Positions 1,299 through 64,000 of a stretch of 64,000 nt of DNA are shown one piece after another; within the stretch, counting starts at the first letter, position 1; every line of letters begins with the position of its first letter. The translations under genes were made by a program, and so were the position numbers. The stretch comes from Amblyomma americanum (Eukaryota; Arthropoda; Arachnida; Ixodida; Ixodidae): NCBI RefSeq assembly GCF_052857255.1, contig NC_135498.1, positions 86,376,639 to 86,440,638 of the forward strand, written 5' to 3'. Below the pieces are notes generated by a model, which saw only the letters and a list, made by a program, of their open reading frames with translations, ran no database searches and was not told the origin of the DNA.

Positions 1299-1625
1299 CA
1301 TCACCATATCAGCCTGAGTACGTCCACACAAGGGCAAAGGCCTCTCCAACATCTCTCCATTAAACCCTCTCTTTTGCAAGCTGCGGCCATTGTATCCCCG
1401 CAAGGTTCTCAACATCATCAGCCCATCTAACTTTGTGCCGCGCCCTGCTACGCTTGCCTTATCTTGAAATCCACTCTGTTACCCTTAAAGACCAGCGGTT
1501 ATTTTGCTTTCGTATTACATGCCCTGCCCAGCCCATTTCACCCTCTTGATTTCGACAAAGATATCAATGACCCTAGTTTGTTCTCTCACCCACTCAGCAC
1601 CCTTCTCGTCTCTTAACGTAGGTGG
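1299..1625 (-). repeat. RTE-type LINE, 3' end fragment
   Basis: On the minus strand this matches the C-terminal and 3' UTR part of the RTE element seen in fuller form at 37,520-43,800: the stretch encoding the W..R/Q..V..I motifs, the GH..RR segment, and the terminal motif around the word CCACTGCAGG are recognisable. It is decayed, with several indels, and carries no open frame of note. It is a 5'-truncated copy. Confidence 0.75.
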
Positions 1626-1860
1626 GCACCCTCACGAGGACGAGCCCTGATGAGGGCGTCCTCACCCTCACCTCAGAACGATTTTACTCAGTGAGGTGAG
1701 AGTGAGAGAGGATGGGCGCAAGAAAATTCGTTAGGCCGGGAGCGAGAGAAGAAATACATGAGGAGGTGAGGGCGAAGAAGGAATGATTTGATGAGGTGAG
1801 GTTGAGGGAGGACAAGATGCACTGTTTGAGGGCAAAAGTGCTGGCCCGAACCGCCTCCGG
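1626..1860. repeat. GAGGTGAG-rich low-complexity repeat
   Basis: Irregular repetition of GAGGTGAG/GTGAGGG words, with a CTCACCTCA word at about 1,665 facing a TGAGGTGAG word at about 1,695, so part can fold back on itself. No coding frame. It looks like a degenerate dispersed tick repeat, not a clean microsatellite. Confidence 0.5.
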
Positions 1861-1861
1861 G

Positions 1862-2208
1862 CTACCGTTTTAAGGCGAAAGCTTTACTGGCCGCGAACTT
1901 GCGATTTCGCCGTGGTGGTGCTCCGAGGAGGCACATGACGTCTGGTTGCGGATCCGAACCGGTCTGGCTGGGCCGGCTGGCGCACTCGGTACGAAATAGA
2001 GACGTGCTCCAAGTCTCCGCCAGTGCGGTCAGAGTGCGCAGAAGCCGCCGAACACGTCTCCGGTCAAGAGCTGTTGAAGTATAGAGGGTCTCGCTTTGGC
2101 CGACGTAACACCCACTGAATAAAAAAAGAAACATGCGCCGAGGCTCGGAATCGAACCAGGGACTTTGGCGCTTGAGGCGGAGACGCTACCACTCCGCCAC
2201 GACGGCTC
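1862..2208 (-). repeat. tRNA-headed SINE-like repeat
   Basis: The minus strand opens with a tRNA-like sequence at about 2,139-2,206: D-arm word GTGGCGGAGTGGTAGCG, an anticodon loop CTCAAGC (CAA, Leu-like) and a T-loop GGTTCGATTC. The anticodon stem and acceptor stem have mismatches, so it is not a working tRNA gene. A body of about 280 bp follows with a coincidental open frame of 90 codons (1,862-2,134). The head is the insertion target of the LINE at 2,209-3,618. Confidence 0.6.
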
Positions 2209-2355
2209 TTTTTTTTCTTTATTGCATGGAAATAGTGCCGAAAAGAAAAGTTTAAGCACACTTACGCCACAAAAAACCAGGCCACCTTACCTCTACTCTG
2301 CATGACCACTCCTTCCAAAACATCAAAAGTCTGGGAGGCACACACATCCATCCAG

Positions 2356-3060
2356 TTAGGGGAGCCAGCTACGCGGCTCTTGATAGGCAGCATATACTCC
2401 CCGCACTAAAGCGCATTGTTCACGAAACAACGATTTCGACGACCGTGGTGACTCGGCGTGGCGGTCCATCATGCGGCTCTTCCAGAGAATAAATAGTCCC
2501 AGCAACATAAATAGATCATATGGCACAACACTGGTTTTCTCCACAGGCAAAAAACGGATACTGTAGGGTGTGATGTCAATGTCCTTCTTAATTGTTCGTT
2601 GTAAAATGACCCAGAACAATATAGCATCAATGCACAGATTAAAGCAATGGTCAATTGCCTCTGGTGTATTGCAAAGGCGGCAATTCACCGTCCATGGCGC
2701 AAGCATCTCCTTAGCATGAAGCCATGCCTTCAAAGGCAGATTGACGTGTGACGCTTAAAAAAGATTGTTTTCGCGGCAGAAGACATGGACATTCACCTAA
2801 CATGTTTTAAAACACTGGCGTCAAGGAACCCCATAGAAGATTTTCGATACAACGGTGCAGGCAACAAATACTCTGTAAGTGCCTGAGTCATCTGCCTTCT
2901 GGAGAGGCTATACAGGTAGTCTAAAGAAAAGGCCACAGTGATGAAATTGAAGGTGTCAGCAACTTCCTCAAGGGAATCCCCATAAAGGCCCCCCCGAGTG
3001 TGTCCCGTCGGTGCGAGAAGGAAAGACAAATGAGCACTGAGACGCCTAATAAGCACAACT
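2356..3060 (-). pseudogene. LINE ORF2 C-terminal region (zf-RVT-like), broken
   Basis: The minus-strand translation carries a C-terminal zinc-ribbon-like motif (CRLCNTPEAIDHC...C) with the downstream block DAILFW..LQRT and the end YAAYQEPRSWLP, typical of the region after reverse transcriptase in many non-LTR elements (zf-RVT family). The upstream part (2,793-3,060) continues the same protein in another frame. An in-frame stop near 2,793 and a frameshift near 2,735-2,750 break it, and upstream residues resume at about 3,395-3,560 beyond the SINE. No reverse transcriptase catalytic motif remains. Clade assignment (L1/Tx1-like or other) is not certain. Confidence 0.65.
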
Positions 3061-3114
3061 ACTAAAAAAGGTGTTTTGACGATTTGAAAGAGAAAAAACG
3101 CAAGACAAGCTGAT

Positions 3115-3382
3115 CCGGCTACTGATCCGGAGTTCCCGGGTTCGAACACGACCGCGGCGACTGCATTTTTATGGCGGCAAAACGCCAAGGCGCTCGTGTG
3201 CTGCGCGAAGTCAGTGCACGGTAAAGATCCCCAGGTGGTAGAAATTATTCCGGAGCCCTCCCTTACGGCTCCTCTTTCTCTCTTTCTTCTTTCACCCCTC
3301 TTTTGTTCCTTCCCTGAGACAGATATGAGACAGATACTGCGCCATTTCCTTTCCCCAAAACAAAATTATAATTATTATTATT
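3115..3382 (+). repeat. Ruka-like SINE, 5' truncated
   Basis: The copy begins inside the tRNA-related head (at the word ccggctactgatccggag), keeps the B-box region GGGTTCGAA, the CAGTGCACG..AAAGATCCCCAGGTGGT block, the pyrimidine-rich body and the CGCCATTTCCTTTCCCC 3' block, and ends in an (ATT)n tail. It is flanked by an exact 12-bp target duplication agacaagctgat at 3,103-3,114 and 3,383-3,394. The insertion lies in the LINE fragment 2,209-3,618. Confidence 0.8.
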
Positions 3383-3636
3383 AGACAAGCTGATGCACGA
3401 ATAAGTGAACAAGGCCGATTCCACCAGACTCTAGAGAAAAAAAATAGGTTATCGCGACGCATGGGTTCCCTTTAGGAACCCGGCCCATACGAGTGTAGCA
3501 AATATTCTGTGCATCACCTGCACTTTCTTCCTCGCACCGTGGAGAAACTGCAACACATATTTAAGTTTTGCAAATAAAAAATGTTGAAGACTTGAGCCTG
3601 AGCAAACACTGATAGTTTACTCCGCCACGACGGCTC

Positions 3637-4084
3637 AAGGGTTAACTATGAATAAAGGCGCATCTAGTGAATGCACTCTTCCGATGCAGAAGTCTCCGTG
3701 CTTTCGCTGCGTATTTCTTGGTCTAGCAGAGATAGGCCTTCAGCAATTTTATTTTCTGTGCAGCCCTTTATGAATTCCGGTTTAAAGCTCTAGTTCTTAG
3801 GGTGAAGGTTCCGGGGAAGACGTAGTTTCGCCGTCTGGAGGTACAGGATTCAAACACGAAATGCGGGGAGCCGCACGCTTTCTCTGCCCCGCGATGTACC
3901 AGACCGCTGACAATGCTGTGCGGAAAAAACGTACTCGTCTAGGTCAATAAGCCTATATTTAAAAATTATTTAAAATTTAAGGTGAAACACCCTGTATAAT
4001 GCGCTAACAGTAGGGCAGTGGCCGTGCCGGGGGGGGGGGGGGGCGAGGCTGTGGCTCCAACGGCAACCGTGGTACCGCTGTCAA
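3637..4084. other. No gene; contains a 15-base G run
   Basis: No open frame or known repeat recognised. A run of 15 consecutive G at 4,029-4,043 is the only marked feature. Confidence 0.5.
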
Positions 4085-37519: not shown

Positions 37520-39045
37520 CGTCAGCCTTACTACACGCACTGCATTGCAAAGGCTTCTCCCATGTCTCTCCAATTGACCCTGTCCTTTGCTAGCTGCATC
37601 CACCCTTTGCCTGCAAACTTCTTAATCTCATCCGGCCACCTAACCTTCTGCCTCCCCCTGCTACGCTTACTTTCTGTTGGAATCCACTTCGTCACCCTTA
37701 ATGACCAGCGGTTATCTTGCCTTCCCATTACATGCCCCATCCAAGCCCATTTCTTCCTCTTGATTTCGACTAGGATGTCATTAACCCGCGTTTGTTTCCT
37801 CGCCCACTCTGCCCGCTTCCGGTCTCTTAACGTTACACCTATCATTTTTCTTTCCATGACTCGCTGCGTTGTCCTTAACTTAAGCTGAACTATTTTCGTT
37901 AGCCTCCACGTTTCTGCCCCGTAGGTGAGTGCCGGTGAGATAAAGCTGTTGTAAACTTTTCTCTTGAGGGAAATTGGTGAAACGTCACTCATGATCTGCG
38001 AGAACCCGCCATATGCGCTCCACCCCATTCTTATCCTTCTACTTATCTTCCTCTCATGATCCGGATCAGCTGTCACTACCTGCCCTATGTATATGTATTC
38101 CTTCACAACTTCCAGGCTCTCGTTGCCAATTGTACACTGCTGTTCGCTTGCTAGACTGCTGAACATTACTTCGGTTTTCTGCATGTTAAATTTTAGACCC
38201 ATCGTTCTGCTCTGCCTGTCTAACTCATTGATCCTGATTTGCAGTTCACCTCCTGAGTGACTCAGCAAAAGAACGTCATCAGCGAATCGCAGAATTTTAG
38301 GTATTCTCAATTTACTCTTACTCCCAACTGTTCTCAATTCAGGCCTCAGATTACCTCCTGTAAAAAGGCGGTGAATAGCATTGGCGATATCGTGTCTCCT
38401 TGCCTAACGCCTTCCTTATTGAAATTTTACTGCTCACTTTATGGAGGACTATAGTATCTGTGCAGTTGCTATGTATATCTTCCAGTATTTTGACATCAGG
38501 CTTTTCTAACCTCTTATTACGCAATGCCTGTATGACTGCTGAGGTTTGCACTGAGTCGAATGCATTCTCGTAATCAATGAAAGCTATATATACAGGTTGG
38601 TTATATTCTGCGCATTTCTCTATCACCTGATTGATGGTGTGGATATGATCTATAGTGGAATATCCTTCACGAAAGCCTGCCTGATCATTTGTTTGATTAA
38701 AGTCTTAAGGTTTTCCTGACTCTATTAGCGATTACATTAGCAAATACTTTTTATGAAACCGATAGTAAGCTTATCGGCCTGTAATTTTTCAAGTCCTTGG
38801 CGTCTCCCTTCTTATGAATTAAGATAATATTTGCATTCTTCCAAGCTTCTGGTACAGTCGAGGTCATAAGGCATTGCGTATACAGGATGGGTAGTTTTTC
38901 TTCTAGCGCGATGTCCCCTCCATCCTTCAACAGATCTGGTGTTACCTGATCCTGGCCAGCAGCTTTTCTCCTTTTCATTGCTCCTAAAGCTTTCTTTACT
39001 TCATCTTTCGTTACTGGCTGGATGACACATTCCTGTGCAAGACCA

Positions 39046-39559
39046 ATCAACCCGTGTAGAAAACCTGGAAAGAACAGTCACCTTCCTACGCGAAAAAATT
39101 ATTGACTTGGAGGACAGAAGTAGGCGTTCCAACTTAGTTGTGTTTGGGGTAGATGAAGCCAGCGATGAAACAGAATCTGTCCTTAGGGAGAAAGTTATTT
39201 CTGAGGTTTTTCAAGAGAAGCTTGGTGTGACATGCAACTCAGTCGCCAGAATCCACCGTATTGGCAAAGCTGGAAAAGAGCGACCCGTCATATTGTTCTT
39301 GCTGGACTTTAATGAAAAACAAGAAGTAATGCGGAATGTATGCAAGCTCAAAGGAACCAAATATTCGGTACAAAATGACTATTCGCGTGACACGCTCAGA
39401 ATAAGGAAACTCTTATGGGACAGTACAAAAATCGATAGGGATCAAGGCAAGAAGCCTATTCTGGTGCATGATAAACTAAAAATGGACGGGCAGATTTTTG
39501 CGTGGGATGAGGCCAACAATTGCAGAATCAAGATACGAAATGAGCAGAGTAAAGAGTGA
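39046..39559 (+). pseudogene. CR1-like ORF1 (copy a), N-terminally truncated
   Basis: About 170 codons: coiled-coil segment ([20 protein letters not shown]), then an RRM-like/L1-ORF1-like domain (NLVVFGVDEASDE, VARIHRIGKAGKERPVI, RDTLRIRKLLWDS, PILVHDKLKMDGQIFAWDE). Nucleic-acid-binding chaperone role is inferred from related LINEs. The copy-d protein at 61,347-61,997 has the same layout and motifs. It ends at TGA 39,557-39,559 followed by CTC, with ORF2 continuing in the same frame. Confidence 0.78.
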
Positions 39560-42306
39560 CTCGCATCACCGCTTATCAAGGAACTCAGGCTTCTAAACAT
39601 AAATGCGCGCAGCGTGGTAAATAAAAGCGATCATCTTGAATCCATAATTCTTGGGTATCAGCCACACATTGTTGTAATCACAGAGACTTGGCTGCACGAA
39701 GGAATTGATGATGAAGATGTTTTCCCTCCCCTTTACCGGGTGTTCCGTCGGGACAGATCTACCAGAGGAGGCAGTGTTGCCGTACTCGTAAAACATGGCA
39801 TCGACGCTTCTTTCCTAACTCAAATTGAAAGGCATGAAAGCCTCGCGTTAAAACTTTCTTGTTTTGGGCGGTCCTTTCTAGTAATTGCAGTTTAGAGAGC
39901 TCCCAATTCCCCTCCGCAGTTTCTACGTGAACTGTCTGACTTCATGAATGATTTTCATCATGACAGAATCTTATTGATTGGTGATTTAAACCTTCCATCA
40001 ATTAACTGGGACAAGCCCTTTCTCAATCCCGATCATGCTGCTCATGAAGAGCACATATTTAATATTATGTTGAGACATGACTTGCAGCAAGTAGTGAGGC
40101 AGCCAACACGTGTACATGGTTGTACTTCTTCTCTACTTGACCTTATCTTTGTAAGCCGATCTATTAGTGACTACCATGTTTCAATTGAGCAAGGAATTTC
40201 CGATCATGATTTGGTATATTGTTCCTTCCCTGTCCATATTGTTTGCAAAAAGCCTGTGGCCAAAGTGTGCTCTGTAAAGGACTTCTCGCGTGCGAAAGAT
40301 GAGAGCGTGTTGGATTATTTAGATTTTTGCCTCAGCAGTTTCCGAGGCAGCAATGCTGATGAGCTATGGAATAAATTTAATACACTGTGCACTCACTGCC
40401 TTGAGAACTTCGTCCCTAATAAAATAATAAAGTCTCGCAAAGCTTCTCCCTGGATCACACGTGAAGTCCTGCAATTGAAAAGAAAAGTGAAACGTTTGAA
40501 GCGTGGAGGCGCCAGTCGTTTCATTATTCAGTCTTTTCAAATATCCCTTAATGCAGCTGTGAGGTCCGCTAAACGACATTCCTTTGAATACAGACTGCCT
40601 AATTTCATTCGAACTTCACCTGAAAAATTTTGGAACCACTTATGTCAAAAGAAAAAAACCTATTGACCGAATAATGCACGACGGCAAGCCTCTCACAGAT
40701 AAAAATGATATTGCTACGCAATTTAACCGCTACTTCCACAGTGTCTTTGCTAATGCAAGTGGTGAACATTATTCTTTTGAAACGCCCTCCACTATGCCTT
40801 CTATTACGATATCAAGACCTGGCATTGTTGAATTGCTGCTAAACCTGAAAACTAAAGCATCGCCAGGCCCTGGTAAAATTCCAAACGCTTTCTTGCGCCG
40901 GTATGCCGAAAAGCTTTCCGAGTTTCTGGTTGTTATTTTTTGCGCATCTCTTTCATCAGCTGTGATTCCTTCAGAGTGGAAAACTGCACGTGTTGTTCCT
41001 GTTCTAAAGAAAGGGGACGCATCACTGATATCAAATTATCGTCCCATCTCTCTCACTTCAACCTGTTGCAAATTACTAGAACACATAATCGCCAAGTACA
41101 CCATCGGTTTTCTTGACGATAACAATATCCTTTCTAACGTTCAACACGGGTTTAGGAAGGGCTTTTCTACTGTAACTCAACTAACATCGGTTGTTCATAG
41201 TTTTGCATCTGTACTTGATAAATCCGGTCAGGCTGATATTATTTTTATGGATTTTAGTAAAGCATTTGACCTCGTCTCCCATTCTAAATTAATTGACAAG
41301 CTTAAACAAGTTGGTCTTCCTAACTTTATAGTTAACTGGGTTTCAGCTTACTTATCTAACCGACAGCAGTTTGTTAGTATTGACGACCATTATTCAAACA
41401 GCCTGCCTGTCTCTTCTGGTGTTCCCCAAGGAAGTGTCCTCGGTCCCCTGTTATTTTTAATATATGTGAATGACATTGTAAAAGTAGTTACTCATCCCGT
41501 TCAAATCCGGCTATTTGCAGATGACTGTGTTTTGTTTAATGTAATTACTTGTCGCGAAGACCAACTATTACTCAATTTAAACCTAAAGAATATTCTGGAT
41601 TGGTGCAACCAGTGGGACATGAAACTTAACGCTCAGAAAACCGTATTTATGAGATTAACAAAAAAAAAACAGCCTTTTATACCCTTACGCTCTTCCACCA
41701 TTTCCACTTTCGGAGGTAACTGAATATAAATATCTTGGCGTGACGATAACTAATAATCTAAGCTGGAACAAACATATAGGTAACGTATGTGCATCAGGTT
41801 TTCGTAAACTTTGTGTCCTCAAGCACAAATTGAAGCATGCTCCTGCAGACTTGAGATTTTTAGCCTATTCATCATTAATCAGACCCAAGTTAGAATACGC
41901 TTGCTTTGTCTGGGACCCATTTACTAAAACTAACATTCAAGCGCTTGAAATGATCCAGCGCAAGGCCATTCGATTCATCTTTTCAAAATACCGTTCAACC
42001 GATTCACCTACTGCCATAATGCGAGCACACCGAATTCAAACATTGCAGGTACGACGTAAAATTCTCAGATTAAAATTTCTTTTCCTTCTCAAACATAACA
42101 AGTTGTCAATGTGCCCGGATCCCTACGTCAAGCCATTTTCCGCTCCACGACCAACAAGACATCGCCACTCTGATTCACTAACTCCATTCACCGCCAGAAC
42201 TAACCTATTTAAATACTCCTTCTTCCCTCGCACCGTAACTGAATGGAATACTTTACCTTTAACAGCACTATGTGACATAGATTCCATTGAAAAAATAGAA
42301 GATTGA
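39560..42306 (+). pseudogene. CR1-like ORF2 (copy a): endonuclease and RT, broken
   Basis: Follows ORF1 in frame with no early ATG. The endonuclease (LLNINARSVVNK, TETWL, GDLNLPSINW, QGISDHDL) has one TAG stop at 39,893-39,895 replacing a tyrosine in VIAVYRAP. A frameshift near 40,655 (A run) leads to RT (KTARVVPVLKKGDAS, SNYRPISLTS, IFMDFSKAFDLVSH, GVPQGSVLGPLLF, RLFADDCVLF). A second shift near 41,665 (A9 run) leads to the C-terminal part (YLGVTITNNLSWNKHI ... VTEWNTLP). No RNase H. Both shifts are at homopolymers. Confidence 0.8.
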
Positions 42307-57322: not shown

Positions 57323-60148
57323 TCAGTTGTTCGTCAACTCTGATTCATCATTTAATTTATGTGGGAGAGTGAAGCGCAACATTTGACAGCCATAATTTGT
57401 GCGCGTCCTAGGTAACAACCATTTCAAAATTGTTCTAGTTGAATACATAGAATGTTTACACTGTAATCTTGACAGCTGAAACATAAAACAGTTGTTTTTA
57501 ATGACGCTTGCCCTGTATCGTTTGCGAAGTAATGTTTTGTATAACTGAGGAAGTGGGATGATGCCTAGTTCTTCACAAATTGGTGCAGAATGTTCGAGTC
57601 GAGGAGCGTTCACAATATTTCTAACAGCTTTCTTTTGTAAACGATGCAAGCGGTTGATGTTAGTGAAAGATGTGGTACCCCAGACCAGTAAACAGTAATC
57701 AACAACAGAAGAAAAAAGTGCGTTATACAGCAATTGCTTTATATGCTTTGGCATAAAATATCGCAGTCGACATAAAATGCCAACGGCCTTAGACAGTTTG
57801 TTAGCCACAATATCAACGTGATCGTTCCAAGTCAAATTTTCATTAAAAAGAACACCAAGACTTTTGACAGTTGGAACTAACTGAATGGATGATGATCCCA
57901 TCCTAAGAAAAAGTGGTGGCAATAAAGTCAGTTTATTGCGAGGTCTAAAAAGCACTGCTTTTGTTTTTTCAGTGTTTATGTTTAAGGAGTTAATTTTGGA
58001 CCATTCATGTAGAGAGTGTAAGCAATCTGCTGCTTGTTGCTCAAGATCTACCAAGTTTGCGGCTCTGAAAAATAAGGAAGTGTCGTCTGCGTAAATGACA
58101 TAACTTGGATGATTGCTTATGCAGACGATGTCATTGATGTAAAGGAGGAAAAGCAGGGGCCCCAGTATACTACCTTGTGGAACGCCTGAAAAGATATGCA
58201 AGGCGTCTGATAAACAGTTGTTTATTATCACCTGTTGCACACGAAAGCCTAGATAAGATTGAATTATTTGAAGAAACTTGCCGCGGAAACCATAGTGCTC
58301 GAGCTTAGCTAACATTATTTTATGATTGATGCGATCGAAAGCTTTAGAAAAATCGACGAAAATTCCTAGCGTAAGTAGTTTCAGCTCAAATGATTCTAAA
58401 ATAAGTTCTTTTTGGGTTAAGAGCGCGGTTTCAGTAGAAAAATGTTTTCGAAAGCCATGCTGGCTGGGATTAATAATGTTATGTTTGCTGCAAAAACCGT
58501 TTATTCGTTTAAACAGTATCTTTTCTAAACACTTTGAGAAAACAGGTAGAATAGAAATAGGTCGATAGTTTGACAGATGATGTTTGTCTCCACCTTTATG
58601 AATAACCGCAACTTTCGCAATCTGCATTCTTTTGGGGAACACTGCTTGCTCTATTCAGCAGTTAAAAATATATTCCAGGACTGGACTAACGATATCGGCT
58701 ACATGTTTGACTGGTAACATTTTCAGGCCGTCAATATCCTGTGCCTTACTGTTGGGCAAGGCCAGGAGATCATTTCTGATTTCATTCGCGTCAGTAGGTG
58801 ACAGGAATGCACTAGAAACAACCCTATCGTCCAGGCATTGCACACTCATTAAATTCCCATTTTGAGCTGCTTGAGACACAAAGTAATTGTTGAAAGTGTC
58901 TGCTAACTCCTTTCCGTTCACAGGTTTGTTGTCGACCAAAATTTCGGACACGCCAGTAGGAGTTGTACCTCGATTTAAAATTTGATTAATGTTGCGCCAC
59001 ACAAGATCAGCCTTTTTAAGCAAGTCACCGTTGAACAGTTTTTCGATGTACTCTTTTTTCGCACGACGAAGGAAGGACGTAACTTGGTTCCGATATGTTT
59101 TAAATTGTTGAAGGTCATCCATTGACCTAGTTTGGACAAAGCGGTTGTACATGTCTGTTTTCCTTTTTATCATCTTTAGGCATTCTGTGGTTATCCACGG
59201 TTTTCGTGCTTTCCGGGGTTTTTGGAAGGTTTCGTAAGGAAAGTTTTCTTCATATTTAGACTTAAATATTGTAATGAACGCATTATAGGCATCGTTAGGA
59301 TCGGTTTCATTGACAACGACACTCCAGTCAATATTCCTTAGTGCAACACGAAAGTGTTTTAATGTGGTAGGATTAATGCGCCGGTATTTTATTACAGTTG
59401 AACTACATTGTTTTTTAGACGTTAAAGAATCGACTATCAGGTATATGGGCAGGTGGTCGCTGATATGAGCAGTAATAACCCCTGATTTCAAACAATCAGC
59501 TGGAAGATTGGTGAAAAAGACGTCGATTGCCGTCGCTGCCTGCAACCGAGTGGGCTCTTTTATAACAGAAATAAAACTATTGCACTGCAATATGGACTCA
59601 ATTTCTAGTTTGTTGGTAGAATATGAGAGCAAATCTACATTGATATCCCCGCCTAGAACAAGATTAAGATTATTTTCTGTTACCCATTCGAGGAATTCGT
59701 CAAGAAAGCTGCTAAAATTGGAGAAGTTGCCTTTAGGCGGCCGGTAGATAACTGTGAAGATATTTCTGCCGTTGCGCACGGAGAGGATTTCATAGTCATC
59801 ATGAACGTAAGTAAACTCGGTGACAAGGCTGTAGCTCAGATCCTTTTCTATCGCTATCATAACACCGCCGCCGCGCTTGTCAGAGCGATTCACTACGTAC
59901 GTGTTGTAGTTTGGCAAGTCCAGTGCTTCACATGTGTTTTGATACCAAGTTTCAGTGATCATTAGTATATTGGAACGAAAGTTAAGCGTGGAAAGAAACG
60001 CTTCAAACTCATCAGCTTTGTTGCGCAACGATTGAGCGTTGATGTGAATGAACGACATTTTCTTGCTCACAGTAGGCGCTATGGATGTGCTAGATGGTCG
60101 TAAGGACGGATACGTTGTCTGGCCCGAGAGAGAACAAAGTGGCTCCAT
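57323..60148 (-). pseudogene. CR1-like ORF2 (copy c): endonuclease and RT, one stop
   Basis: One frame of about 940 codons from ATG 60,148 with a single TGA at 58,655-58,657 (after LEYIFNC). Endonuclease: FIHINAQSLRNK, ITETWY, YRPPKGNF, GGDINVDLL, HISDHLPIY. RT: KRMQIAKVAVIHKGGDKH, LSNYRPISILPVF, IFVDFSKAFDRINH, GVPQGSILGPLLF, YVIYADDTSLFF, SLGVLFNENLTWNDH. No RNase H. All catalytic motifs I can identify are present, so only the stop prevents full translation. Confidence 0.85.
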
Positions 60149-60193
60149 TGTGGGTGCGGAAAAGCAGTATGCCTAAGAGTCGGAGCCAAACCC

Positions 60194-61092
60194 CTATGAA
60201 AGCCGATCGAGGTCACATGCTTTGGACACCACTATCGCCGATGTGCCGTCAGATTTCTGGACCAGTATCTTGCCGTTACTGTGCCAGGCGTATTTGTAGT
60301 CGTGTTGTTTTGTCCATTCTTGTGTTTTTTGCAACAGCTCCCGATTTCGTTTGGTTAGGTTCTCAAGAATATGCACGTTGTCATTTCCATTCCCGATCTT
60401 TTTCCTGCTTTCCCACCATAGGTCACGAGTTTTTTGTTTAGAGAAGCGGCAGATAATAGCAGGGACCTTACCCCGCCTTGACGGCAGCCGGTGTATTGCA
60501 TCCAGGTCGTCATCAGAAAGTTGCGGAAGCTCAATCCTTGCAGCGATAATGTTGATTTTTGCCAAGAGGTCTTCTTTATCTGTTTGAGGTATGCCGTGGA
60601 ACTGTAAGTTGGCTCGCCTATTTCGCCATTCTAATTCGTCTAGCTGGGCTATTAGCGGTTCAGTGTGTTCGTTTTCTTCTAGTTTTTTGACTCGGCTCCT
60701 GATGTCCTTTATCGCGTGCTCGTTTTTATCAACACGGTCCAGTAAGTTAGTCAGTTGATCGGACATGAATTGAACAGACTGCTCTAACCCTTCAACTGTC
60801 TGTTTCAATGGCATCAGTGTTTCCAGTTTGCGATTGATGGCTAGCAACATTTGCCACATGTTCTGCATGCTTGGCTCCATGTCTGCTTTTTCAAACTGTT
60901 GGTTTTCACTGTCTGGTTTTCTACATTTGGGGCATCTCCATGTTTGTCGGTAGTTCTTTTTTTTTTCAGTGTAGTTTTTGACACGCCAGCACACTCGCCT
61001 ACATGGTACACAGCTTTGCATTCACTGCAAGAGAGGCCATCTTCGTCCTCCACCACTAATTGACACGTGGGACATTCGTTATCGTTACACAT
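60194..61092 (-). pseudogene. CR1-like ORF1 (copy c): PHD finger, coiled coil, RNA-binding domain; one frameshift
   Basis: Starts at ATG 61,092. A PHD-type C4HC3 finger spans the first 65 residues (CPTC, CSEC, YHVGEC, WRCPKC). A shift in the A run at about 60,955-60,966 separates its first and last cysteine pairs. A coiled coil follows (LKQTVEGLEQSVQFM, LLDRVDKNEHAIKDI), then an L1-ORF1-like domain (RRANLQFHGIPQTDKEDL, DAIHRLPSRRGKVPAI). PHD fingers usually read histone tails; in ORF1 they may steer RNA or chromatin contacts. Two stops and 45 nt separate it from ORF2 in the same frame. Confidence 0.8.
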
Positions 61093-61187
61093 TGTACACC
61101 TGGCAGCAGCAGCAGCAGTGAGACAATTGACTAGGCTTATTTCTACTGTGAAACAGATACCTGAATTTTTTGGTTGACTCTTGGTCT

Positions 61188-61997
61188 ATGGTGTTGACAC
61201 TGTTGGTTTCAGGAGATGTTGAAGAAAATCCTGGGCCCAAAACCGCAGAAATGTTGCAATTAATCATTGATAATCAGGCTTCATCAGATGCTAAAATGGA
61301 TGCATTAAGAGCTGAAATGACCGAAATGAAAGAAAAATGCGAATAAATGACCACTACACTTACCGTGATTGCAGAATTGAACAAGCGAGTACAAAGCCTA
61401 GAATCCCTTGTTCGTCATCAGGCGGATAAGTTGGTAGAATATGAAAATAGAAGCCGATCCAATAACCTCTTGGTTTTTGGTATCGATGAGGACAAGGGTG
61501 AATCAGACAGCGACCTGAAGCAAGCTGTTATTGAGAATGTATTCAAAGGAACCTTGGGAGTACAAGTGAACTCGATCGACAAAATTCATCGTATTGGCAA
61601 GAAAAAAGACGGTAGTAATCGGCCGGTAATCATGCATTTTTATGATTCGCGGGAAAAACAGTCTGTGATGCAAAACTGTGGCAAGCTGAAAGGCAGCTCG
61701 ATAAGCATAAGTCAAGACTACGCTAAGGAAACTGCAGAAGTACGAAAAAAACTATGGCAAAGCAGTGAAAAGGAACGAGCAAGCGGCAACAAGGTAAAAC
61801 TGGTACATGACAAGCTTAAGATCAACAATCATATCTACGTCTGGGATCGTGAAAGAAATGAACGGTGCCTGTTCCGTACGGAGCAAGATAAGGTTCTTCG
61901 ATTCAAAAAGAGGGGAAAAACTGCTAGCCAGGCATTGATTCAGTTGAAAACTTCAGAGAAGGCTTCTGACACGGATAGCGATTCTTCTCGGTCATAG
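61188..61997 (+). pseudogene. CR1-like ORF1 (copy d) with N-terminal 2A, one internal TAA
   Basis: From ATG 61,188 the frame reads MVLTLLVSGDVEENPGP, a 2A motif, then a 35-residue helical segment (MLQLIIDNQASSDAKMD) to a TAA at 61,344-61,346 that is directly followed by ATG 61,347 in the same frame. From there 216 codons are open: coiled coil (ELNKRVQSLESLVRHQAD), L1-ORF1-like domain (NNLLVFGIDEDKGESD, DKIHRIGKKKDGSNRPVI, KLVHDKLKINNHIYVWDRE) and a serine-rich tail. The TAA may be a mutation, or the first frame may be a separate short ORF with reinitiation (TAAATG). ORF1 ends at TAG 61,995-61,997, with ORF2 continuing in frame. Confidence 0.75.
61200..61238 (+). other. 2A ribosome-skipping motif
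   Basis: Codons for LLVSGDVEENPGP. GDVEENPGP fits the D-(V/I)-E-x-N-P-G-P consensus exactly, with hydrophobic leucines upstream as in active 2A sequences. It would release a short N-terminal peptide between G and P. 2A-like sequences are known in some non-LTR retrotransposons, including L1Tc of trypanosomes. Confidence 0.85.
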
Positions 61998-64000
61998 CTC
62001 AGAATTCTACTTGTAAACGCCCGCAGTATCGCAAATAAAGTAAGTGATTTAGAGTATCTTCTAATTTCTCAAACCCCTGATGTATTGATGTTGACTGAGA
62101 CATGGTTACATAGTGCAATTAGTGACAGTAGTATTTTTCCTCCTGACTTCAAGGTGTTTAGATGCGACAGGGATTCTAGAGGTGGTGGCGTGGCTATAGT
62201 TGTGAAAAGCACTATAAACGCAGTCGCTCTTGATTGCAGTCTCCCTGAAACGGTTTGGTGCAAGATCAGCTGTGCAGACATGTGGTATATATTAGGGACT
62301 GTGTATAGACCACCAGCCACTCCGCCAGAATTTTTGGATAGCTTGAATGAATTCCTTAGCTCCCATGTAAATGGAAACACAAGACTAATAATGGCTGGTG
62401 ACTTTAATTTGCCGCATATTGATTGGGAAAGTCTATCAGCGGGTAATGCAGAAATAAGGAGCGCCAATAAAATGATGCAGATTATGTTTTCATATAACCT
62501 TAAGCAAATAGTTAAAGACTTCACAAGAGTTACACCAAAGTCCCAGTCATTGTTGGACTTGGTTTTCATATCCGGTAGAATACCTGACTATATTGTATCA
62601 GTTGAAAATGGTTTATCGGATCATAAGATGGTTTGCTTGAATGTACCACTGCACACAAGAATCTGTAAGCAAGCATATGTCGTGAAGCATGTTAAGGATT
62701 ATGGCCGTGCGAATGACACGTCTATCCTAGATGTTTTGGAAGAACAGTTTAATGAATTTGAAATAGCATCCAACTGCGAAAGTGTAGAAGAACTATGGAA
62801 CCGTCTTAAAGGGATAATCAAATACTGCATAGATCATTTTGTACCCACGCGTATAAAGAAATCAAAGCAAAGAAATCCATGGATAACTAGGCACATCATA
62901 CACCTTAAGCGTAAGATAAAAAGACTAAGGAAGAAAAAAAAGCAGGGCAATAGAACTTTCAATAACCAAACAAATGTTAAAACCTGCTTTGCTGGAGTCG
63001 AAGAAAACGTTCTTTAATAAAACGCTTACAAACTTCCTCAAATGCTCGCCACAAAAGTTTTGGCGATACTTCACAGATAGAAAGAATGCAATAGAACAGA
63101 TAGTGGATGGCGACGTAGTCGCGACAGAAAAAAAAGCTATTGCAAACGTACTTAATCATTTCTTCCAATCAGTTTTTACCAAGGATAGATGTGATGCAGA
63201 CGATGATCCTTTACACTGCGCAATACAATACCCAATGGAAGACCTAGGCATTAAAAGGGAGGGCGTGTTCCAGCATTTGCTTACGTTGGACGCAAAAAAA
63301 TCGTGTGGCCCAGATGAAATACCGTCGGCATTTCTTCAACGGTACGCTGAATGGATGTCGTATTATTTGCAGCTTTTATTTGAAAAATCTTTGCGAGATC
63401 ATTCAGTACCTCAGGACTGGCGCGCTGCCACCGTCATTCCGATATTTAAAGGTGGCAATAGGCTATGCGCAAACAATTATAGACCAGTCTCGCTGACTTC
63501 TGTGTGCTGTAAAGTCCTAGAGCATGCAATAGCAAAACATTCTGTATTTTTTAGACAAAAACGATTTATTATGCCCAGTTCAGCACGGTTTCCGATCTGG
63601 CCTTTCGACTGTGACACAGTTAATCGAAACTGTACATGACCTTTGTAAAGCTATAGATGAATGCCAACAGATAGATATTGTGTGTATAGACTTTGCGAAG
63701 GCATTTGATAAAGTTGTACATCATAAATTACTTTCCAAATTGAGAAGCCTAGGAATTAGTGAAACTATAGTATTATGGATTCAGGCATATTTAATGAATC
63801 GTTACCAAAAGGTTAGAATCGGTAACAGTGATTCGGGGAAGTGTGCAGTTGTGTCAGGAGTGCCGCAGGGGTCTGTTTTAGGCCCGCTATTGTTTTTATT
63901 GTATATTAATGATATTCCTTCTAACGTTGTTCCGCCCGTAAAAATTAAACTGTTTGCCGATGACTGCTTAATTTACTCGCGTGTAGCCTGCGCTGAAGAT
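61998..64000 (+). pseudogene. CR1-like ORF2 (copy d): endonuclease and RT, two frameshifts, cut by window end
   Basis: Continues in frame after the ORF1 TAG (first codons CTC AGA ATT, L-R-I-L-L-V-N-A-R-S); the first in-frame ATG is only at 62,088, inside the endonuclease. Endonuclease: LTETWLH, YRPPATPPEF, MAGDFNLPHIDWE, GLSDHKM. A frameshift near 62,980 leads to RT (CGPDEIPSAFLQRY, ATVIPIFKGGNRLC, NYRPVSLTSVC); a second near 63,550 (T run) leads to DLLCPVQHGFRSGLSTV, IDFAKAFDKVVH, GVPQGSVLGPLLF and LFADDC at about 63,950. The C-terminal part is beyond the window. Confidence 0.78.

What the first reader, a model, noticed from the sequence alone, without database searches (positions are those of the whole stretch)
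61188..61346. 2A ribosome-skipping motif at the start of a tick CR1-like ORF1
LLVSGDVEENPGP is an exact 2A consensus, best known from viruses and found in a few non-LTR retrotransposons. It sits 8-17 codons after an ATG and in frame with ORF1, so the ribosome would release a small leader peptide and continue. Preserved consensus in a partly decayed copy suggests that it was functional in the master element.
Basis: partly seen in the sequence, partly recalled or inferred. Interest (0 to 1): 0.8.

Follow-up and report, generated by a model that had tools for sequence, protein, structure and literature searches.

The report
Ribosome-skipping peptide in tick jumping gene
A family of tick jumping genes carries, just before its first protein, a short peptide signal of the kind that makes ribosomes skip one bond; it appears to cut off a variable-length protein made from the element's own repeated promoter, an arrangement that could be tested directly.

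Summary
The motif is real: LLVSGDVEENPGP (window + 61200-61238) is an exact 2A/StopGo consensus, in frame with ORF1 of an EN+RT non-LTR element and 99.2% identical to an intact copy in the same genome (lone star tick, inferred). 56 of 62 related ORF1 proteins have it (50 of the 62 named as tick, five genera), as do the six element families read as DNA. The window copy is 5'-truncated near 61154, so the ATG at 61188 is not the native start. Full-length copies begin with tandem 234-306-nt monomers of promoter layout (CRE-like site at -53, initiator at +1, AUG at +31) that are open and in frame with ORF1: the 2A separates a translated leader of about 60 aa plus 78-102 aa per monomer from ORF1p. 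ORF2 follows in the same frame after a conserved UAG-C without a usable AUG. The element is thus one reading frame with a skip site and a putative leaky stop. 2As in CR1-clade LINEs are known (recalled); an in-frame promoter array trimmed by a 2A was not found in the listings searched. Skipping and readthrough are inferred, not shown.

The parts
61154..61214 (+). Remnant of the translated leader (...YLNFLVDSWSMVLTLLVSG), truncated at about 61154; includes the LLLLSG-like hexapeptide TLLVSG before the core
   Evidence: Homology to intact copy L019 begins at 61154; leader conserved in relatives
61188..61190 (+).
   Evidence: Val, Leu, Ile or Thr at this place in several relatives; full-length copies read on through it from upstream
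61215..61238 (+). 2A/StopGo octapeptide DVEENPG|P; predicted skip between 61235 and 61236
   Evidence: present in 56 of 62 related proteins
61236..61997 (+). ORF1 (coiled coil plus LINE-1 ORF1p-like domain), TAG at 61995-61997; interrupted in this copy by a private TAA at 61344-61346
   Evidence: profile of relatives hits LINE-1 ORF1p 2ykp, E 3.4e-6
61995..62000 (+). TAG-CTC junction: ORF1 stop directly followed in the same frame by ORF2
   Evidence: 22 of 22 fetched loci whose frame runs unbroken from the 2A to the ORF1 end have TAG-CT[CA]
61998..64000 (+). ORF2: endonuclease (61998-63017) then reverse transcriptase in pieces (62929-63639, 63533-64000), frame-broken in this copy and cut by the window end
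   Evidence: Pfam PF14529, PF03372 and PF00078; the middle piece 62929-63636 alone gave no Pfam match

Best explanation
This is the 5'-truncated remnant of a tick APE-type LINE whose whole coding capacity lies in one reading frame. The full-length element starts with n tandem promoter monomers. RNA polymerase II starts at an initiator inside a monomer (TTC|AGAGGGCACGG) under a CRE-like box at -53; the RNA has a 30-nt 5' UTR and an AUG at +31. Because each monomer is a whole number of codons without stops, ribosomes translate all remaining monomers and a unique leader (MxK..LLLLQV...RSDNRFLLVLPCP...DCWSxLLLLxSG), reach D(V/I)ExNPG|P, skip the Gly-Pro bond, release the leader and go on to make ORF1p with a constant N-terminal Pro. 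So ORF1p is the same whatever monomer transcription began in. ORF2 follows in frame after UAG-C and is probably made by leaky readthrough. Shown by sequence: array, frame, copy 5' ends, motif conservation, junction. Inferred: transcription start, translation of the array, skipping, readthrough.
For: Motif in 56 of 62 related proteins, 2 more with a one-residue variant, 1 starting inside it, 3 without that region. In 34 of 34 fetched loci with an intact octapeptide at least one full monomer is open and in frame before it; arrays hold 1.2 to 14.3 units (40 loci). 51 of 54 adjacent monomer spacings are multiples of 3, over periods 234, 240, 243, 246, 297 and 306. No stop in the ORF1 frame of any of 6 monomers, 1-4 stops in each other frame. 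31 of 40 copies begin within -1..+8 nt of the initiator A, 16 exactly on it, with differing flanks. CRE-like box at -53 and ATG[TG]CT at +31 in 6 of 6 families. Unique leader shows excess synonymous change in 5 of the 5 family pairs tested, of 15 possible (p 7.5e-6 to 0.02). Two database proteins from transcript-derived entries (origin recalled) carry repeat plus leader plus 2A (P0029, P0039). The upstream residues match by eye the LLLLSG-like class reported for viral 2As (PMC12846837).
Against: No RNA or protein data: transcription start is inferred from copy 5' ends and no skipping was measured. Monomer codons are only weakly constrained (3 of 5 pairs at p<0.02) and the monomer is also promoter DNA, so openness rather than amino-acid content may be what is kept. 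The fetched copies were chosen largely for long open frames. The family D monomer used also has an out-of-frame ATG at +8. UAG readthrough lacks a structured downstream element (z -0.40 to +2.36 in 5 families). Degenerate 2As exist: L021, L022, L033, L035, L047 (point changes), L023 (frame broken), L053, L057, L058, L060. 3 of 54 spacings are not multiples of 3.
Confidence: 0.78

Rival explanations
1. The 2A is real and active, but only the last AUG (in the terminal partial monomer) is used; the array is ordinary untranslated promoter and its open frame is incidental.
For: Each monomer carries conserved DNA boxes and its codons are only weakly constrained. An AUG in a like context stands in the terminal partial monomer.
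Against: 51 of 54 spacings are multiples of 3 across six period lengths and all six monomers read are open in the ORF1 frame. 31 of 40 copies begin at the first monomer's initiator, 30 nt before its AUG. None of 40 copies consists of the terminal partial monomer alone. 25 of 34 leaders of 75 aa or more in the protein set have in-frame repeats.
Confidence: 0.15
2. The leader is a targeting device, as in sea urchin NLR proteins: a signal-like hydrophobic start plus a leaky 2A sends unskipped ORF1p to the secretory route and skipped ORF1p to the cytosol.
For: Each monomer start is hydrophobic (maximum 11-residue Kyte-Doolittle mean 2.0 to 2.3 in 6 families). The sea urchin case is measured: PMC4981915, abstract and recoding section read.
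Against: No signal-peptide predictor was run. A targeting role does not by itself need a variable number of in-frame repeats. Compatible with the best explanation rather than exclusive of it.
Confidence: 0.2
3. The conserved Gln-Val before the unique leader is a splice donor (CAG|GT) and the apparent fusion of monomer and leader is removed by splicing.
For: The Val is near-invariant and Gln is the consensus before it in 15 aligned relatives; read CAG GTT at the last monomer end in families A to E.
Against: Family F reads CAG GCA, and family E has Gln-Ala inside the array, so the GT is not always kept; the bases that follow in family A (GTTTTG, GTTCGT) are poor donors by the recalled consensus. 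Two proteins of transcript-derived entries (origin recalled) keep a monomer before the leader.
Confidence: 0.03
4. The motif is a chance match or relic without function.
For: The window copy itself is dead (truncated, in-frame stop, broken ORF2).
Against: Chance expectation 7.6e-5 per window; present in 56 of 62 relatives, down to 29% overall identity to P0002 among 20 aligned.
Confidence: 0.02

Closest known systems
2A-bearing APE-type LINEs of the Rex1, Crack, L2, L2A, CR1 and Ingi clades (Odon et al. 2013, Mol Biol Evol; paper not held, clade list recalled; title seen in reference lists)
   Same: EN+RT non-LTR element with a 2A-like sequence in the reading frame
   Different: Here there are two ORFs, the 2A precedes ORF1, and what it removes is a variable leader translated from the promoter array; no such array is recalled there
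SpNLR N-terminal 2A signal sequences of sea urchin (Roulston et al. 2016, PMC4981915; outline with abstract, passages and one section read)
   Same: Hydrophobic N-terminal leader ending in a D(V/I)ExNPGP 2A; recoding measured there (about 80% in vitro)
   Different: Host immune-receptor genes; no tandem units described in what I read
Mouse L1 monomer promoters (PMC10620060; search listing and passages read)
   Same: Variable number of tandem ~200-bp promoter monomers; loss of 5' sequence in daughter elements may reflect starts in internal monomers
   Different: Described there as a 5' untranslated region; in the tick element the monomers are open and in frame with ORF1
Viral StopGo with LLLLSG-like upstream hexapeptide (PMC12846837; passages and section 14 read)
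   Same: Same octapeptide and, by eye, the same upstream class
   Different: Viral polyproteins, used between proteins rather than after a promoter-encoded leader
SART1 UAAUG termination-reinitiation, and mammalian L1 ORF2 (review PMC5972666; passages read)
   Same: Two-ORF LINE needing an unusual way to make ORF2
   Different: Here ORF2 is in the same frame right after UAG-C without AUG; a measured precedent for UAG-C readthrough in an arthropod is Drosophila dfr (PMC8417969; passages read)

Membership tests
2A / StopGo sequences | Core octapeptide D(V/I)ExNPGP | tested here: met
   DVEENPGP at 61215-61238; kept in relatives
2A / StopGo sequences | Suitable upstream residues (e.g. LLLLSG-like) and about 25-30 aa or more of nascent chain | tested here: met
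   TLLVSG here, LLLLSG, LLLTSG etc. in relatives, compared by eye with the classes in PMC12846837. 60-64 aa from the last AUG to the Gly in 6 families; but only 16 aa from the window copy's own ATG
2A / StopGo sequences | Measured separation without a protease | not testable with these tools
   Needs in vitro translation
APE-type non-LTR retrotransposon (LINE) | AP-like endonuclease followed by reverse transcriptase | tested here: met
   PF14529/PF03372 and PF00078
APE-type non-LTR retrotransposon (LINE) | Short-repeat 3' tail and 5'-truncated copies | tested here: met
   AAATA/ATAAA-type tails in the 4 loci read, L019, L020, L024, L027; window copy truncated
CR1 clade | RT/EN phylogeny inside CR1 | not tested
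   No reference RT set at hand; type II ORF1 occurs in L1, CR1, L2 and R1 clades (PMC4120745)
Monomer-type LINE promoter (as mouse L1) | Variable number of tandem monomers at the 5' end, with starts inside monomers | tested here: met
   1.2 to 14.3 monomers per copy; 31 of 40 copies start at the initiator; RNA starts themselves not seen
Monomer-type LINE promoter (as mouse L1) | Monomers lie in the untranslated region | tested here: not met
   Monomers open and in frame with ORF1 through the 2A; translation itself not seen
Stop-codon readthrough gene | Conserved leaky-type stop with an in-frame coding extension and no other start | tested here: met
   TAG-CT[CA] in 22 of 22 loci with an unbroken ORF1. 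First in-frame AUG at ORF2 codon 31 (A), 53 (C, D, E) or 114 (B); TETW at codon 33. Its catalytic role is recalled; a non-AUG start is not excluded
Stop-codon readthrough gene | Downstream RNA structure (common, not universal) | tested here: not met
   Energy z-scores -0.40 to +2.36 in 5 families

The most novel reading that the evidence does not exclude
A LINE expressed from a single reading frame, in which the tandem promoter monomers double as coding sequence (each a whole number of codons, open, with its own AUG at +31), a 2A skip strips this variable-length leader so that every transcript yields the same ORF1p, and a UAG-C readthrough adds ORF2. 2A would thus serve as the device that lets an element keep a repeated internal promoter downstream of its own start site without blocking translation.
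Probability: 0.6. Interest if true: 0.85.

Novelty: new variant of a known kind. Interest (0 to 1): 0.76.

Why it matters
An internal promoter must be inside the transcript it makes; repeated promoter monomers therefore put several AUGs and hundreds of bases ahead of ORF1. These tick elements seem to solve this by translating the promoter and cutting it off with a 2A. That gives 2A a role different from polyprotein processing or targeting, and offers a natural series (1 to 14 monomers) for testing how leader length affects skipping. It would also make ORF1:ORF2 dosage in a LINE testable as a stop-codon readthrough. The repeats plus 2A occur in proteins of five tick genera including Ixodes, which suggests that the design is old.

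Tried and rejected
Splice-donor reading of the conserved Gln-Val: rejected (family F and part of family E lack GT). Chance motif: rejected. TAA at 61344 as a conserved short-ORF stop: rejected, P0001 and L019 have a sense codon. RNA structure after the UAG: none. Rfam: nothing at 58000-64000 at gathering scores. Initiator block of the family A monomer in the window, up to 3 mismatches: none, so no array is left here. Viral and GTDB contig collections: no relatives confirmed. Pfam gave nothing for the window ORF1 and only single-member matches to unrelated family names for 15 relatives; the solved-structure profile search did find LINE-1 ORF1p. The alignment statistic (7 of 13 invariant columns in G-D-x-E-x-N-P-G-P among 20 proteins) is not used as evidence, because I had picked those 20 from motif-bearing proteins. 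Odon 2013, Luke 2014 and Rao 2025 are not held, so I cannot say whether tick sequences are listed there. By title and abstract start, the rows listed (25 of 232; 25 of 787; 1 of 1; 15 of 194; 10 of 14; 2 of 2; 10 of 46) showed no paper on a 2A in a tick LINE, and those (15 of 17; 5 of 5; 12 of 353) none on an in-frame promoter array or UAG readthrough between LINE ORFs; only the open-licence library was searched and most rows were not opened.

Full report
What is there. At window + 61188-61238 the frame reads MVLTLLVSGDVEENPGP, open into ORF1. It is the only D[VI]ExNPGP in the six frames of the 64 kb; base composition predicts 7.6e-5. The element has an AP-like endonuclease and a reverse transcriptase, so it is an APE-type LINE. 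The profile of 15 ORF1 relatives matches LINE-1 ORF1p (2ykp, E 3.4e-6): type II ORF1, which occurs in L1, CR1, L2 and R1 clades (PMC4120745, passages). The clade itself was not tested.

Host. The window lies in a 2.56-Gb genome. One contig of it, 227,218,120 bases long, has the length of the longest contig listed for proteins P0044 and P0053, named Amblyomma americanum. I take the genome to be that tick.

Is the motif conserved? A search with ORF1 lacking the motif found 4 tick proteins; 3 carry it and the fourth has an unrelated N-terminus. A profile search found 61 proteins; with P0004 that makes 62, of which 50 are named as tick and 12 come from unnamed contigs. Of the 62, 56 have [DGCN][VI]ExNPGP (47 of the 50 named, 9 of the 12 unnamed), P0050 and P0061 have one-residue variants, P0056 starts inside it, and P0004, P0017 and P0054 lack that region. 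The profile contained the motif, which favours finding it. Named genera: Haemaphysalis, Ixodes, Rhipicephalus, Dermacentor, Amblyomma. In the genome, a query without the motif listed 150 copies (155 matches reported; 150 of 11,408 candidates scored). 138 of the 150 reach the N-terminal end, and 115 of those have a match to the 2A region next to them (a match is not proof of an intact octapeptide). Of the other 23, 14 were fetched: 6 intact (one with a stop just before), 4 degenerate, 4 without the region; one more lies in L026, which is intact and had missed my distance rule; 8 were not examined. Among 40 longer loci picked from the 150 hits of the motif query, largely for long frames, 34 have an intact octapeptide; L021, L022, L023, L033, L035 and L047 do not.

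The native leader. The window copy aligns from 61154 with intact copy L019 at 99.2% and is truncated there. Intact copies read upstream through a conserved block (MxK..LLLLQV, then RSDNRFLLVLPCP...DCWSxLLLLxSG) and then through tandem monomers in the same frame; 34 of 34 loci with an intact octapeptide have at least one full monomer open in frame before it. L011 has 8.2 monomers, L028 14.3 with an open frame of 1535 aa. Periods are 240/243, 243, 246, 306, 297 and 234 nt in families A to F, and 51 of 54 neighbouring spacings are multiples of 3. In the one monomer read per family, the ORF1 frame has no stop while each other frame has 1 to 4. Dinucleotide shuffles leave that frame open in 3-11% of cases per family; the families are related, so the product of these values is not a probability. 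In the protein set 25 of 34 leaders of 75 aa or more contain an in-frame repeat (8 or more identical residues), in all five genera, among them two proteins of entries that I recall to be transcript-derived (P0029 Ixodes ricinus, P0039 Rhipicephalus pulchellus).

Where does the RNA start? In 31 of 40 copies, with differing flanks, the element begins within -1 to +8 nt of the A in TTC|AGAGGGCACGG, 16 exactly on it. A spread over the monomer would put about 1.5 of 40 there (my arithmetic). The nine others include two sets that share a flank (L009, L012, L014; L016, L017) and are probably duplicates. In all six families a CRE-like T[GT]ACGTCA lies exactly 53 nt upstream of this A, and ATG[TG]CT begins 30 nt after it, although monomer length varies by 72 nt; the family D monomer used has a further, out-of-frame ATG at +8. 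This is the layout of a promoter, its start and its first codon. None of the 40 copies consists only of the terminal partial monomer.

Selection. For 5 of the 15 family pairs I compared substitution classes: the unique leader shows an excess of synonymous change in 5 of 5 (p 7.5e-6 to 0.02), the monomer in 3 of 5 at p<0.02 (pairs are not independent). dN/dS over all pairs was 0.14-0.54 for the leader (12 of 15 pairs computable), 0.47-0.87 for the monomer (15 of 15), and 0.12-0.14 for ORF1 in the two pairs not saturated. The monomer seems kept open rather than kept as a particular protein.

How it works, most likely. RNA starts in a monomer; the next AUG is used; ribosomes pass the remaining monomers and the leader; the L-rich stretch plus D(V/I)ExNPGP makes them skip the Gly-Pro bond; ORF1p is made with the same N-terminus whatever the monomer number. 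Full 2A activity needs roughly 25 to over 30 aa of nascent chain (PMC11512398 and PMC12846837, passages and a section). The native leader gives at least 60; the stub from the window's ATG gives 16. The upstream hexapeptide belongs by eye to the LLLLSG-like class; in that study changing characteristic upstream residues nearly abolished activity in almost all cases (PMC12846837). A related N-terminal hydrophobic 2A in sea urchin was about 80% active in vitro (PMC4981915). Skipping was not measured here.

ORF2. In 22 of 22 loci whose frame runs unbroken from the 2A to the ORF1 end (families A to E), ORF1 ends with TAG-CT[CA] and ORF2 continues in the same frame. The second family copy in the window ends with TGA-CTC. 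The first in-frame AUG of ORF2 is at codon 31, 53 or 114, in 4 of 5 families beyond TETW at codon 33. Among 150 listed ORF2 matches (of 16,683 candidates) no open frame exceeds 967 aa, so none is long enough to hold ORF1 and ORF2 together; one locus, L025, has a 1021-aa frame from the 2A into ORF2, through loss of the ORF1 end, and the gene-model protein P0036 aligns across the junction without a stop. UAG-C is a leaky context with a measured arthropod precedent, Drosophila dfr (PMC8417969, passages). No downstream structure was found. Readthrough is the simplest reading; reinitiation at a non-AUG codon is not excluded.

Novelty. 2As in LINEs, including the CR1 clade, are known (Odon 2013, recalled; not held). 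In the rows listed by the searches named under Tried and rejected I saw no paper describing a 2A in a tick LINE, a translated promoter array cut off by a 2A, or UAG readthrough between LINE ORFs; the library is open-licence only, and Rao 2025 on cellular 2As was not readable. I rate it a new variant of a known kind.

Noticed in passing
window 61995-61997 and 39557-39559 (+): In both family copies ORF1 ends with a stop plus C (TAG-CTC, TGA-CTC) and ORF2 runs on in the same frame without an AUG; likely readthrough
   Followed up: yes
window 39035-40400 (+): Second, more diverged copy of the same superfamily, 5'-truncated inside ORF1, so its 2A site cannot be judged
   Followed up: partly
window 58655-61185 (-): A different LINE lies head to head with the 2A element: ORF1 with a cysteine-rich PHD-like start (by eye) and a Baculo_FP_2nd domain, then an endonuclease frame
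   Followed up: no
L009-L048: None of 40 copies has only the terminal partial monomer, though that initiator also has a CRE-like box upstream; perhaps a whole monomer is needed for the promoter or for translation
   Followed up: no
L040, frame 1462-3817: A family D element sits in frame behind another LINE's ORF1-like sequence (by eye), giving a 784-aa open frame
   Followed up: no
protein P0139 (jgi): A LINE-type protein from an unnamed source has CGDIHPNPGP directly before its endonuclease, a variant 2A in the one-ORF position
   Followed up: no
L019, L020, L024, L027 3' ends: Short hairpin-like CCCTCATG..GGG followed by an AAATA/ATAAA repeat tail at the element end
   Followed up: no
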